A stretch of DNA of 64,000 nt from an uncultured Lachnospiraceae bacterium (GTDB lineage: Bacteria > Bacillota > Clostridia > Lachnospirales > Anaerotignaceae): contig CALWRB010000035.1 in assembly GCA_944383855.1 (NCBI GenBank), positions 1 to 64,000 on the forward strand, in the 5' to 3' direction. This document shows, piece after piece, positions 5,676-10,216 of the stretch. Each line of letters opens with the position of its first letter. The stretch's first letter is position 1. Position numbers and translations under genes: made by a program. The notes below the pieces were generated by a model, which worked only from the letters and a program-made list of their open reading frames with translations, did no database searches and was not told where the DNA came from.

Positions 5676-6269
5676 TCATTGCTGCGCGCCGCGAAAACCG
5701 TTCAAAAACATCGGCAGCATCTGTCTGGCGTACTGCGTCAAAGAATACTCCCCGTTGCATAGACACCAGTCATAGATCAGCGCCCGCTCACACAGCGCAT
5801 AGGCTTTGATAAAATCATTAACGGAAATATCCTGTCTGATCTCCCCGCGCTGCTGCCCTTCCGCCGTGATCTGGCGCAGCAGTTTGTAGTACACACGGTT
5901 ATGATCGAGCAAATGTTTCTCCCCTGCCGTTGTCAGTTGGGAAGAATACAGCCGGCTGACCAAAGAAAGCGGTACCGTATCGTCCATCATGCGAAACAGC
6001 TCCTGATTCAGTAACATCAGCTTCTCAAAGCTGTTCATCTGCGCGGGGATCTGCCCCATCAGCTGCTGGTAACGGTCGTCAAACAGATCGGAAAGGGAAC
6101 TGAGCAGGGCGTCTTTGCCGCTGAAATAGTGGTAAAACGAACCCTTTGACGTGCCGGATTTCTCCACGATCTCCTCAATGGTCGTATCATCGTAGCCCTG
6201 TTCATAAAACAGTTTCCATGCCGCGGAAACGATTTTGCTTTTCGTATTGCGGTTGTTTTTCTTCGCCAT
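5676..6269 (-). CDS. TetR/AcrR-family transcriptional regulator
   Basis: The protein has 197 residues. The N-terminal helix-turn-helix (about 8-55) is classic TetR: KSKIVSAAWKLFYEQGYDDT, then TIEEIVEKSGTSKGSFYHYF. The C-terminal ligand-binding domain is unassigned. The gene starts 16 bases after the CARF-nuclease gene and so is the last gene of that operon. It may autoregulate that operon or act on putP downstream. The inducer is unknown. Confidence 0.88.
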   Translation of the reverse strand: MAKKNNRNTKSKIVSAAWKLFYEQGYDDTTIEEIVEKSGTSKGSFYHYFSGKDALLSSLSDLFDDRYQQLMGQIPAQMNSFEKLMLLNQELFRMMDDTVPLSLVSRLYSSQLTTAGEKHLLDHNRVYYKLLRQITAEGQQRGEIRQDISVNDFIKAYALCERALIYDWCLCNGEYSLTQYARQMLPMFLNGFRGAQQ

Positions 6270-6285
6270 AGCCGCTCCTCTTTTT

Positions 6286-7485
6286 TTATACTTTCTTCCA
6301 CTTCAGGCTGACCAGATCATGTCCTTTGATGGTATCGACCAGTCTTTGCTCAAAATCCTCGGCAAGAATATCGTCTGCGTCCAACAGCTCCAATCCCAGC
6401 TCCTGCGCTCGTTTATATGTACCGGTATGCTCTCGTTTTTCCCGACTGTATGTGACGATGACACCCTTCGAAAACCAGCCGCCCAACCGCTTTTTCGCGA
6501 TCAAAAGCTCATTGAGCGCGGCAGTATCGGCATCGCGCAGTTTGCAGGAAATGAATACCGGTAAAGAGTCTTCCATCAATATCACATCGATCTCATTGCC
6601 CGCCATCGTCACGCCGTCGTAAGCGTCCCAGTCGATCATCGTGCCGAGCTTCACGTCCTGAAACGCGCCGGATCTTGCGGCAGAAACATAGACATATAAC
6701 TCCAGCCATACCCCGTAATTGATACAGTACTGCTTATTTTCCTTCGAAGTAAAGCGAAAGCGCACCCGATGCTCCTCGATTACCAGTCCGCTGATGAAAC
6801 CGTTTCGCTCCAGTTCCAATAAAATATGTTCATTCGCCCAAGCCTTTTTCCCGTTTTTCATGCTGACCTGTTTTTTGCTGTTGACATACATTTCATTGGG
6901 CTGCAGGCGGGATACCACCACCTGCAAAAAACTGCAAGTCGGTTTCCATTCAAATAAATGGCGGAATAAATACCTTGCCATGCGCAAGATCGCGTCATAC
7001 CGATCCTCTGCGGGCGGTTTATGCGACTCGCCGATAAAGCAGGCGCCTCTGGCGTCCACAAAATCCTCCAATGTCAGCTGTATGGTCTTTGCCACCACTT
7101 CTTCCCTGTCCAAATCCAGAATGGATTTGCTCGCTAATTCTGTGTAAAGCAGCTTGACACCTTTTTCACTGCCCGCCTTATAGCCCGCGATCATCATCAG
7201 CTCGCTGCCGCCTGTCAGCTCCATCGCAAAGCCTTCCGCACCTTCTCTTTCGATCAGACGGCAGGTGGTGCTGTAGATCTGATTCAGCGATAAAATATTG
7301 ATCGGATACGTTTCCAGTTTGATCTGCGGCATATGCCGCTGAAAGCATTTTTCCAGACTGCGAAAGCAAGTCAGATCCTGTATTTCCTTATCATACAGAA
7401 AAATGACTTTTTTCGGCCGCAGCGTCAAAACCGCCATGATATTTTTCAAAACATCTTTATCGTAAAACTCCAACAGGGTTTCCAT
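6286..7485 (-). CDS. Card1/Can2-like CARF-nuclease (DUF1887 family)
   Basis: The 399-residue protein looks like the DUF1887 family (VC1899 type), to which the cyclic-oligoadenylate-activated nuclease Card1 is related. The N-terminal Rossmann-like part carries FAMELTGGSELMMIAGY (about 87-102), the position where CARF domains show the T-G-G-T/S ligand loop. A middle winged-helix-like region (about 205-255) follows. The C-terminal PD-(D/E)xK-like part has WLELYVY (E262 area), GNEIDVI with D300, and FISCKL with K315; serine stands where many such nucleases carry the second acid. In type III CRISPR systems such proteins are switched on by cyclic oligoadenylates. Here no CRISPR array or cas gene is in the window. 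It lies between gerW (21 bases upstream) and tetR (16 bases downstream). Confidence 0.72.
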   Translation of the reverse strand: METLLEFYDKDVLKNIMAVLTLRPKKVIFLYDKEIQDLTCFRSLEKCFQRHMPQIKLETYPINILSLNQIYSTTCRLIEREGAEGFAMELTGGSELMMIAGYKAGSEKGVKLLYTELASKSILDLDREEVVAKTIQLTLEDFVDARGACFIGESHKPPAEDRYDAILRMARYLFRHLFEWKPTCSFLQVVVSRLQPNEMYVNSKKQVSMKNGKKAWANEHILLELERNGFISGLVIEEHRVRFRFTSKENKQYCINYGVWLELYVYVSAARSGAFQDVKLGTMIDWDAYDGVTMAGNEIDVILMEDSLPVFISCKLRDADTAALNELLIAKKRLGGWFSKGVIVTYSREKREHTGTYKRAQELGLELLDADDILAEDFEQRLVDTIKGHDLVSLKWKKV

Positions 7486-7506
7486 ATCGGTTCCCCCTTC
7501 CTTGCG

Positions 7507-7902
7507 TCAATCTTCCACAATGGTTTCTTCTTCAAACTTCACAGAAGGCTCGTCTTTTTTCCTGCCGCTAAAAACAGAGGCAAAGTCCAGACGATCCACA
7601 ACACCCGGCGCCATATCGATCAGCTTGCTGACCGCATCTTGATTTTTAACATTGATCATCTGTACGGAGCCACCGCGGATCACCAATACCGCAGAAGGTG
7701 TGATCTTCGCGCCCATACCGCCTGCCGTGTTTTGCTTGCCTTGCTGCTGCGCGCCCGCACCCACGCCGACCGAAACCTCGATCAGCGGCAAAAGTGTTAC
7801 CTCTCCTAAAACGATCGCATCGCCCACCACGGTTTTGGTAGATACCAAATCATCGACTTTTTGAAACAATACTTCCAAAGAATCCTGAAATTCTTTTCCC
7901 AT
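7507..7902 (-). CDS. gerW: Spore germination protein GerW (YtfJ)
   Basis: This 131-residue protein matches GerW/YtfJ, needed in Bacillus for germination in response to some nutrients. Recognisable blocks are VVGDAIVLGEVTLLPLIEVS, the glycine-rich GVGAGAQ and GGMGAKITPSAVLVI. The C-terminal tail is acidic (EEETIVED). It lies seven bases downstream of the DUF2953 gene, an arrangement also known for ytfI-ytfJ in Bacillus, which supports both calls. It should be made in the forespore, but I did not find a forespore-type promoter directly before it; the operon is probably read from upstream. Confidence 0.9.
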   Translation of the reverse strand: MGKEFQDSLEVLFQKVDDLVSTKTVVGDAIVLGEVTLLPLIEVSVGVGAGAQQQGKQNTAGGMGAKITPSAVLVIRGGSVQMINVKNQDAVSKLIDMAPGVVDRLDFASVFSGRKKDEPSVKFEEETIVED

Positions 7903-7909
7903 GCCCTTC

Positions 7910-8914
7910 TCACCTGCGTCCTTTCCAAATGGTTTTTATGATGCGCCGAACAGGCTTTGCACATACAAACGCCATGCCTGCCCATGCCAAATATCCCAAT
8001 CTGATGCGCCCTTTGACCCGTACAGAAATATCCTCTGCTGTCGCTTTGGAAAAATCCCCCCGTATTTGAAGATTTTCCCCGAATTTTGCTTTCGCGATCC
8101 CCGCAGCCGCCAACAAATATCCCGTCGCGGCAGGGTCCCCCGTGCCAAATGTGCCGGAAAGAGAAAAATCTTTCGGCAAAACGCCTTTCATCAGCCGCCG
8201 AAGCAATCTGCCAAACGCCGCCGCTAACTCCTTCTTCTCCTCCATCTGCAGAAAATAACGGATCGACAAGCCTTCTTCCTCCGCCTGTTTTTCCTCACAG
8301 CTTGCCTCCCTCGCAGGCTCCTGTGTATCAGGCGCGTTGTCCGGTGCGATGTGTGATACTTTCACCCGTCTGATCCCGGCAGAGGGTCTGTTTTCTTCCG
8401 CCGCGGCAACGCGTTCCTTTTCTTTTTCCAAGGGCGGCTCCTGCTGCAAAAGAGAATCTTCCTTTTCTTCCGCTTTTTCTTGCAAAGAAGGCTTTTCTTG
8501 CGCTTCTAAGGGCAAAGTGTCTGCCTTTTCTTTCCTCTGCGCAGGCGGTGTTGGCGCATCGGTCCTCTCTCTTGCCGCGATCGGTGCGTTTTGCACCTTT
8601 TTTGCGGCAGTTTTGTTCCGTTTTTTCTTCTTTTTTTCTTTTTTCCCCTCACCGAGAATGGTTTTGCCGCATAATCTGACGGTCAGCTCTAACTTTCCTT
8701 CCTGATAGCGCGCCAGAACGTAAAGCGCACCGAACAGCCAACGCACCTCGGCTTGTCCGTTTGGTTCGGGCGACTGCTGCGCCTGCACTTGATAGCGTAT
8801 TGAGCAAAGCAGTACCACCAACAATACCAACAATACCAACGCGATCAGACCCAGCAGCACAATACCGATCCATTTCAGTACCGTCAACAGTCCAAACAAT
8901 ATCTTCCAACCCAT
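7910..8914 (-). CDS. DUF2953 (YtfI-like) membrane protein with charged insert
   Basis: A 334-residue protein with one long N-terminal membrane helix (about 5-38). A short globular part (45-88) follows, then a very charged Glu/Lys/Ala/Gln-rich stretch (about 92-220, including KKEKKKKKRN) and a C-terminal domain (about 225-334: YFLQMEEKKELAAAFGRLLR, FSLSGTFGTGDPAATGYLLA, RVKGRIRLGYLAW) typical of DUF2953. Family members are usually near 220 residues, so the charged linker is an addition. The gene starts three bases after the preceding 117-residue gene. It pairs with gerW, but its biochemical role is unknown. Confidence 0.82.
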   Translation of the reverse strand: MGWKILFGLLTVLKWIGIVLLGLIALVLLVLLVVLLCSIRYQVQAQQSPEPNGQAEVRWLFGALYVLARYQEGKLELTVRLCGKTILGEGKKEKKKKKRNKTAAKKVQNAPIAARERTDAPTPPAQRKEKADTLPLEAQEKPSLQEKAEEKEDSLLQQEPPLEKEKERVAAAEENRPSAGIRRVKVSHIAPDNAPDTQEPAREASCEEKQAEEEGLSIRYFLQMEEKKELAAAFGRLLRRLMKGVLPKDFSLSGTFGTGDPAATGYLLAAAGIAKAKFGENLQIRGDFSKATAEDISVRVKGRIRLGYLAWAGMAFVCAKPVRRIIKTIWKGRR

Positions 8915-8917
8915 AGG

Positions 8918-9271
8918 CTATCTCTGCCTTTCCTGCGCCGCGTCTGCCTCTGTCATGACCAGACGCGCCCACTGCCTTTGATCTGTCATACTAAGCCCTT
9001 GCGCGGCGGCATCTTTGGCAATTTGCAGCAAAAGTTCCACTGCGTTTTTTCTGCCCATCGCAATGCCGAGGATCAGCCAGTCACGGCTTTTGCCGTAAGG
9101 GGTACATAACGATCTTGCGCTTTGCACTTCCAGACGATCTTCATGCAAACAGACACACCACAGCCGAAACACGGGAACCTCCCGCCGCAGGGCATACACC
9201 GCCGTTTCCACGTCCGTCACCGTATCGCTGATGTAGATCTCGTCGCCCAGATGCATCTTTGGTTTGCACAT
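8918..9271 (-). CDS. Hypothetical protein, first gene of the gerW operon
   Basis: I do not recognise this 117-residue protein. It has no signal peptide or membrane helix. It begins MCKPKMHLGDEIYISDTVTD and contains two tryptophans and four cysteines in the first half, then an alpha-helical, Gln/Ala-rich C-terminus. A good ribosome binding site (GAGAGG) precedes the ATG. Upstream on the minus strand is an extended -10 box (TGGTACAAT, about 9313-9321). Three bases separate it from the DUF2953 gene, so it is very likely translated with it. Confidence 0.65.
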   Translation of the reverse strand: MCKPKMHLGDEIYISDTVTDVETAVYALRREVPVFRLWCVCLHEDRLEVQSARSLCTPYGKSRDWLILGIAMGRKNAVELLLQIAKDAAAQGLSMTDQRQWARLVMTEADAAQERQR

Positions 9272-9373: not shown

Positions 9374-9796
9374 CTATTTTGTGCCGTATGGCTCTTGTTT
9401 GCCTGCGGCAGGGGGATTTTTTGTCTGCCCGTTTGCGGGCTTCTTTCTGCCTGCCACAAAAATCTCGCGCAGCCCCATCAGGCACAAAAAACCGCCGAAG
9501 AGCTTACGCAGCAGCGTGCCGTCCAGATATACCGCCAGAAAAGCGCCTGCCGCCGCACCCAAAAGCCCCGTAAATATCAAAGGTTTCGCGATTTTGACCG
9601 CGATCGTTTTCTGCCGCAGGTGGGTATAGATCGCGATCAGCGCCGTTGGCACAAAATACAGCAGATTGATGCCCTGCAGCGTCTGCTGCTCCAGATCGTA
9701 CAGCCAGAGAAGTGCAGGGATCAGCACCGTACCGCCGCCGATGCCCATACCGCTGACGATGCCCGCAAAAAAGCCTGCCACTACCGCCCCGATCAT
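9374..9796 (-). CDS. TauE/SafE-family permease, second half-size subunit
   Basis: The protein of 140 residues starts MIGAVVAGFFAGIVSGMGIG and carries GIGGGTVLIPAL, the signature of one repeat of the TauE/SafE (DUF81) permease fold. About four membrane helices can be seen and the tail (GRKKPANGQTKNPP) is soluble. Full family members have about 250 residues and two such repeats; this gene has one. The ATG overlaps the TGA of the preceding gene (ATGA), which indicates translational coupling, and sets the start well inside the longer open frame. Substrates in this family are sulfur-containing or organic anions; the one here is unknown. Confidence 0.82.
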   Translation of the reverse strand: MIGAVVAGFFAGIVSGMGIGGGTVLIPALLWLYDLEQQTLQGINLLYFVPTALIAIYTHLRQKTIAVKIAKPLIFTGLLGAAAGAFLAVYLDGTLLRKLFGGFLCLMGLREIFVAGRKKPANGQTKNPPAAGKQEPYGTK

Positions 9797-10149
9797 AACA
9801 TCATCCTCACAGCGGCCGCCAACATACATACCCCAAAGATACGATGCAGCCATACGCCGCTTAAACGCCGTAAAAGTTTCGCCCCCACAAAACCGCCTGC
9901 TACGCCTCCCGCACTTGCCCAAAGCGCAATTTCCCACGCAAGTTCCGTCTTCCAAAGGTATATCCCCAACGAAAGCAGGCTCAGCGGCAAAATCACCGCC
10001 AACGCCGTAGCGTGCGCACGGTGTTCTTCCACATCAAGAAACCGCTCCATCGCAGGCACTACGATCGTGCCGCCGCCGCTGCCGAACAGTCCGTTGGCAA
10101 ATCCTGTCACGATCCCTACCAGATGCGTCTGCCATGCCATATGCTTCAT
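9793..10149 (-). CDS. TauE/SafE-family permease, first half-size subunit
   Basis: This 118-residue protein carries the other repeat of the TauE/SafE fold: VGIVTGFANGLFGSGGGTIV followed by a conserved ALAVILPLSL helix. I chose the ATG at 10149 (MKHMAWQ) because AGGTGGAGAG lies properly before it. A longer reading from 10182 would place that site inside the gene. Together with the downstream 140-residue gene it should make a heteromeric version of the usual single-chain permease. Confidence 0.82.
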   Translation of the reverse strand: MKHMAWQTHLVGIVTGFANGLFGSGGGTIVVPAMERFLDVEEHRAHATALAVILPLSLLSLGIYLWKTELAWEIALWASAGGVAGGFVGAKLLRRLSGVWLHRIFGVCMLAAAVRMML

Positions 10150-10216
10150 ATGCTCTCTCCACCTTTTTTTCTGTTTTTCCATAGTATGGCAGAGAAAACA
10201 GGATTTTATGCCATAG

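What the first reader, a model, noticed from the sequence alone, without database searches (positions are those of the whole stretch)
5676..9271. Card1-like CARF nuclease in a gerW spore operon
A DUF1887 protein with TGGS ligand loop and a PD-(D/E)xK-like region lies between gerW and a TetR gene with gaps of 21 and 16 bases, in one apparent operon. No CRISPR array, cas gene or cyclase is nearby. The Card1 family is activated by cyclic oligoadenylates in type III CRISPR defence. The link to germination could be incidental, or it may be a stress or abortive-infection module acting in or near the spore. The acidic residue of the second motif is Ser (SCK).
Basis: partly seen in the sequence, partly recalled or inferred. 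Interest (0 to 1): 0.75.

Follow-up and report, generated by a model that had tools for sequence, protein, structure and literature searches.

The report
CRISPR-free CARF nuclease in gerW operon
A protein built like the CRISPR defence nuclease Card1 has become a permanent, single-copy gene in the spore-gene (gerW) operon of a whole bacterial family that mostly lacks type III CRISPR, and its signal-binding pocket has turned acidic, so it probably answers to a different signal than the known ones.

Summary
In detail: a 399-aa CARF-PD-(D/E)xK protein (6286-7485, minus) lies 21 bp after gerW and 16 bp before a TetR gene. The fold is Card1/Can2/VC1899 over its whole length (model pLDDT 93; VIA Z 25.9-31.8). 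It is no stray defence gene: it is single-copy in 55/58 genomes of its family (Anaerotignaceae; 37/37 of high quality), behind DUF2953-gerW with gaps of -1 to 62 bp in 46/47 loci, under strong purifying selection (dN/dS about 0.06, as gerW). Clear Cas10 is in 6/58 genomes, not in this one; Cas1, RAMPs and SMODS cyclases were not found here. The type III loci examined carry their own Csm6. Two changes are fixed: the conserved cOA-binding lysine (Can2 K99, Cdn1 K104) is Glu95 (acidic in 70/70), and the catalytic Glu of ExK is Ser313. Two more cA4-contact positions are Asp9 and Asp32, as in VC1899, an orphan published as not regulated by cA4. Best reading: a VC1899-like orphan CARF nuclease fixed in a gerW operon and gated by something other than Cas10-made cOA. 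Spore role, ligand and nuclease activity are untested; no sporulation promoter motif was found.

The parts
6286..7485 (-). CARF (about 1-133), linker/helical part (134-250) and PD-(D/E)xK nuclease (about 251-399) protein, 399 aa
7201..7215 (-). T91-G-G-S-E95 loop after CARF strand 4; E95 stands where cOA-binding CARFs have Lys
   Evidence: PMC10018336, PMC7969007, PMC12825302
6541..6594 (-). nuclease core E298-x-D300 ... S313-C314-K315 (with E262, four of the five Mg-network residues of Cdn1 kept; catalytic Glu replaced by Ser)
7507..7902 (-). GerW/YtfJ family protein (PF09579), 131 aa
7910..8914 (-). DUF2953-like protein (weak Pfam match), 334 aa; conserved partner by position
8918..9271 (-). 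117-aa protein of no known family, conserved in the block upstream; relatives have a Lit gene between it and DUF2953 that is missing here
5676..6269 (-). TetR-family regulator; same operon only in the Anaerotignum-like part of the family

Best explanation
It is an orphan CARF4-clade CARF-PD-(D/E)xK protein (Can2/Card1/VC1899 fold) that separated from CRISPR and became a vertically inherited core gene of Anaerotignaceae, lying in one apparent operon behind DUF2953 and gerW. Shown here: family-wide presence, synteny, co-inheritance, purifying selection, fold, retention of the nuclease core except E-to-S, and acidic replacement of the cOA-binding lysine. Inferred from the solved relatives: it works as a homodimer; a cellular ligand other than Cas10-made cOA (or a partner protein) binds the acidic CARF pocket and moves the two nuclease domains so that E298/D300/K315, probably with E262 and possibly E326, cut nucleic acid. 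Further inferred, with less certainty: since it shares an operon with gerW, which is expressed in the developing spore in Bacillus, it acts during spore development or dormancy, for example in RNA or DNA processing.
For: 55/58 family genomes, 37/37 of high quality, carry it, one copy each (a second match in one genome is the other half of a split frame); gerW and spo0A likewise. DUF2953-GerW-CARF synteny in the family loci with enough flank; GerW-CARF gap -1 to 62 bp in 46/47. CARF and GerW+DUF2953 trees share 30 of 36 splits, patristic r 0.90, one strong conflict. Median dN/dS 0.060 vs 0.059 for GerW. Clear Cas10 in 6/58 genomes, none in own; RAMPs in 3 of the 36 family genomes searched; SMODS 0/58; no Cas1 or RAMPs in own; four type III loci examined carry Csm6 of their own. 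Fold: VC1899 Z 31.8, Can2 Z 29.1, Card1 Z 27.2 over the whole chain. Mapping onto Cdn1: K104 to E95, Y124 to Y114, E274/E308/D310/K325 to E262/E298/D300/K315, E323 to S313. Position 95 acidic in 70/70, Glu in 48/48 of the family. VC1899, likewise acidic at the positions of D9 and D32, is an orphan with weak RNase activity not regulated by cA4 (PMC7969007). The nuclease core is the best-conserved part (32 of 95 columns at 98% or more).
Against: E-to-S at 313 could mean a weakened or dead nuclease. No sporulation sigma-factor motif is enriched upstream of any gene of the block. GerW is dispensable for germination in Bacillus (PMC4366231), and its family is also found in an archaeon (control). 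One genus without a SpoIVA match (G005, G019) keeps the CARF gene. No coordinates were available to inspect the pocket. The window genome is only 86.7% complete.
Confidence: 0.6

Rival explanations
1. It is a standard cOA-activated Card1/Can2 defence effector that borrows cyclic oligoadenylates from a type III CRISPR or CBASS system elsewhere or from horizontally acquired systems.
For: Whole-length Can2/Card1 fold; 6/58 family genomes have Cas10.
Against: Lys99/Lys102/Lys104 position is Glu in 48/48; D9 and D32 replace the Ser and Thr contacts; no Cas10, Cas1, RAMP or SMODS in own genome; type III loci examined have their own Csm6; vertical, single copy, not in phage or viral collections.
Confidence: 0.08
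2. The nuclease is dead: the protein is a ligand-binding or nucleic-acid-binding scaffold or regulator that kept the fold only.
For: The catalytic Glu of ExK is Ser in all members; this Glu is part of the Mg network in Cdn1 (PMC12825302).
Against: E262, E298, D300 and K315 are invariant in 70 sequences, and the nuclease core is the most conserved region, which is unusual for a decayed active site; E326 on the following helix is invariant in the family and could take over (not tested in 3D).
Confidence: 0.25
3. The gene is a stress or abortive-infection module with a CRISPR-independent trigger that happens to be parked in a stable operon.
For: CARF nucleases are typically defence effectors; relatives outside the family occur singly in other loci.
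Against: Defence genes normally come and go; this one is in 37/37 good genomes at one site with gerW-like selection; neighbours of outside relatives are mostly housekeeping genes, without a type III locus.
Confidence: 0.2
4. The link to gerW is incidental: CARF entered the operon once early in the family and has a vegetative housekeeping role (e.g. RNA turnover) unrelated to spores.
For: Lit and TauE in the same block are not spore genes; no sigma E/F/G motif; one genome (G006) has the block without CARF; a genus without a SpoIVA match keeps it.
Against: Direct adjacency to gerW, of all genes in the block, is kept through the family, while the TetR gene on the other side is not.
Confidence: 0.4

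Closest known systems
VC1899 of Vibrio cholerae (PDB 1xmx), orphan DUF1887/CARF4 protein
   Same: Best structural match over the whole chain (Z 31.8); Asp at the positions of D9 and D32; no CRISPR partner; E-x-D and K of the nuclease kept.
   Different: VC1899 has Arg where this has E95, and ECK where this has SCK; VC1899 is not known as a family-wide gerW-operon gene.
Can2/Card1/Cdn1 (type III CRISPR ancillary nucleases)
   Same: Domain order, fold, most of the Mg-binding network, pocket Tyr (Y114; Tyr or His in the family).
   Different: About 13-18% identity in the structural alignments; conserved cOA-binding Lys is Glu; Ser for catalytic Glu; no type III locus in most hosts; vertical inheritance.
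PADLOC CARF4--CARF_PDDEXK model PDLC01895
   Same: Full-length match at E 1.8e-203: this sequence group was already catalogued as a candidate defence CARF protein.
   Different: The catalogue entry as returned gives no operon context, no CRISPR-independence and no residue changes.

Membership tests
DUF1887 / CARF4 CARF-PD-(D/E)xK proteins | CARF Rossmann domain followed by PD-(D/E)xK domain, whole-length fold | tested here: met
DUF1887 / CARF4 CARF-PD-(D/E)xK proteins | canonical nuclease motif E-x-D ... E-x-K | tested here: not met
   E298, D300 and K315 present; the Glu of E-x-K is Ser313 in 70/70 (the retrieval pattern contained SCK, but 19/19 also in the set taken without that pattern). 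Membership by fold and homology stands; canonical catalysis cannot be assumed.
Card1/Can2 cOA-activated effectors | conserved pocket lysine after TGG (Can2 K99, Card1 K102, Cdn1 K104) | tested here: not met
   Glu95, acidic in 70/70 (PMC10018336, PMC7969007)
Card1/Can2 cOA-activated effectors | encoded with a type III CRISPR-Cas locus | tested here: not met
Card1/Can2 cOA-activated effectors | nuclease activated by cA4 | not testable with these tools
   needs binding and cleavage assays
VC1899-like orphan CARF proteins | no CRISPR linkage and acidic residues in the cA4 site | tested here: met
GerW operon / spore genes | conserved synteny with gerW in hosts with sporulation genes | tested here: met
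GerW operon / spore genes | sporulation sigma-factor promoter | tested here: inconclusive
   no enrichment of sigma E/F/G-like motifs against shuffles; consensus patterns are those of Bacillus

The most novel reading that the evidence does not exclude
A CARF nuclease has been domesticated into spore development in Anaerotignaceae: a non-cOA ligand made or released in the forespore (perhaps a cation, polyamine or metal complex, given the acidic D9/D11/D32/E95 pocket) switches a Ser-variant PD-(D/E)xK nuclease on or off, a CARF signalling pathway outside antiviral defence.
Probability: 0.25. Interest if true: 0.85.

Novelty: new variant of a known kind. Interest (0 to 1): 0.6.

Why it matters
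CARF proteins are treated as sensors of antiviral cyclic oligoadenylates; in a 2014 survey only 9 of 145 CARF-bearing genomes lacked both cas1 and cas10 (PMC4012209). Here a whole bacterial family keeps one in a core operon, mostly without Cas10. That gives a clean system, with cultured species such as A. lactatifermentans and A. neopropionicum, in which to ask what CARF domains sense when type III CRISPR is absent, and warns against calling every DUF1887 gene a defence effector.

Tried and rejected
Hidden type III or CBASS partner: no Cas10, RAMP, Cas1 or SMODS in own genome; weak matches to the Cas10 palm model elsewhere look like GGDEF-type proteins (inferred from their scores) and were not counted. 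Mobile or phage origin: nothing in viral contigs or phages, one distant plasmid match at 21%. Sporulation promoters: no enrichment. E326 as a migrated catalytic Glu (as in Cfr10I-type enzymes, from general knowledge): suggestive conservation, but Lys in three distant relatives and no model coordinates to measure distances. G006 as the ancestral empty site: its position in the tree is unsupported (0.55), so gain and loss cannot be told apart. The 2020 CARF classification paper is not held. Literature searches found no report of a CARF-gerW link; most subscription journals are not searched.

Full report
Observation. Pfam calls Card1_endonuc (E 7e-9) and CARF_Card1 (E 1e-4, just under its cut-off) in the 399-aa protein, Spore_YtfJ in the 131-aa protein and TetR_N in the 197-aa protein; the DUF2953 call is weak. 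PADLOC has a full-length CARF4--CARF_PDDEXK model for this group (E 1.8e-203), so the sequences are not unknown, but the context appears to be unreported in the papers that could be searched.

Distribution. A search of the host's family (58 genomes, 17 genera) finds the protein in 55, and in all 37 genomes of high quality, once each; the second match in G061 is the other half of a split frame. Named contigs identify the family as Anaerotignaceae (Anaerotignum and relatives). GerW and Spo0A have nearly the same distribution; SpoIVA is in 52 of 58, the window's genome included. Outside the family, relatives at 20-41% identity occur sporadically in Lachnospiraceae and other Clostridia. GerW was not found near those with flanks, and a pooled scan of their neighbours shows mostly housekeeping genes and no type III locus.

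Synteny and selection. DUF2953-GerW-CARF is conserved in the family loci with enough flank; the GerW-CARF gap is -1 to 62 bp in 46 of 47. TetR follows only in the Anaerotignum-like half. One genome, G006, has the upstream block and gerW followed by serC-serA, without CARF; its place in the tree is unsupported, so this may be a loss or an ancestral state. The CARF tree matches the GerW+DUF2953 tree (30 of 36 splits, patristic r 0.90, one strongly supported conflict). Median dN/dS is 0.060 for CARF, 0.059 for GerW, 0.034 for TetR and 0.25 for DUF2953. This is the behaviour of a core gene, not of a defence gene that comes and goes.

No cOA source. Clear Cas10 matches (E below 1e-35) occur in 6 of 58 family genomes, not in the window's own. 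RAMPs and Cas1 were not found in the own genome, and SMODS cyclases in none of the 58. The own assembly is 86.7% complete, so its own negatives are not final, but the family-wide pattern does not depend on it. The four type III loci whose candidate effector was identified (L146, L149, L150, L151) encode their own Csm6.

Fold and residues. The AlphaFold2 model (pLDDT 93.1, pTM 0.89) matches VC1899 (Z 31.8, 361 residues, rmsd 3.3), Can2 (29.1), 8bao (28.3), Cdn1 (27.8) and Card1 (27.2) over the whole chain. Cdn1's published metal network E274, E308, D310, E323, K325 (PMC12825302) maps to E262, E298, D300, S313, K315: four of five kept. Its cA4-backbone residues K104 and Y124 map to E95 and Y114. 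The four cA4 contacts shared by Can1 and Can2 (S19, T42, K99, Y118; PMC7969007) map, by the alignment and its continuation by one residue, to D9, D32, E95 and Y114. Position 95 is Glu in 48 of 48 family members and acidic in 22 of 22 others. In Sis0455, mutation of this lysine lowers cA4 binding about 2000-fold (PMC10018336). VC1899, with Asp at the positions of D9 and D32, was published as an orphan with weak RNase activity not regulated by cA4, and its acidic site as unsuited to cA4. The window protein is one step further, with Glu where VC1899 keeps Arg. Ser313 is constant in the set; the retrieval pattern contained SCK, but the 19 sequences taken without that pattern all have it too.

Interpretation. 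That this is a CRISPR-independent, family-core CARF4 protein is well supported. That it does not answer to cOA is a strong prediction from residues and gene content, not a measurement. That the nuclease is active is more likely than not, since four metal-network residues are invariant and the nuclease core is the most conserved region, but E-to-S leaves room for a dead enzyme. A spore role rests on the operon alone: gerW is expressed in the developing spore in Bacillus (PMC4366231), yet it is not needed for germination there, and no sporulation promoter motif was found here. The confidences given to rivals overlap, since a dead nuclease or an incidental gerW link is compatible with the CRISPR-independent core reading.

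Verdict. New variant of a known kind: a VC1899-like orphan CARF nuclease, fixed in a gerW operon, with a charge-reversed pocket.

Noticed in passing
window 9374-10182: TauE/SafE appears as two overlapping half-size ORFs here (9793-10182 matches only profile positions 119-237), and half-size TauE ORFs next to each other are also seen in L044 6561-7279, so the split looks conserved.
   Followed up: partly
window 8914-8918; L044:7867-8550, L109:1756-2568: Relatives carry a Lit (lipoprotein intramolecular transacylase, PF07314) gene between the 117-aa protein and DUF2953; it is missing at this place in the window.
   Followed up: partly
window 8918-9271: 117-aa protein without any Pfam, NCBIfam or PHROGs match, conserved in the gerW block of most of the family.
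   Followed up: no
neighbours of L083-L111: One relative outside the family has an RtcR/PspF-like CARF-AAA-HTH gene within about 5 kb (E 4e-93).
   Followed up: no
L152:6813-7934, L154:6666-7787: Related CARF4 proteins in a large-genome Lachnospirales genus have SSGDN instead of TGGSE in the ligand loop and also SCK, a further divergent group.
   Followed up: no
L079:6242-6830: Only family locus with a 578-bp gap between gerW and CARF; could hold an insertion or a separate promoter.
   Followed up: no
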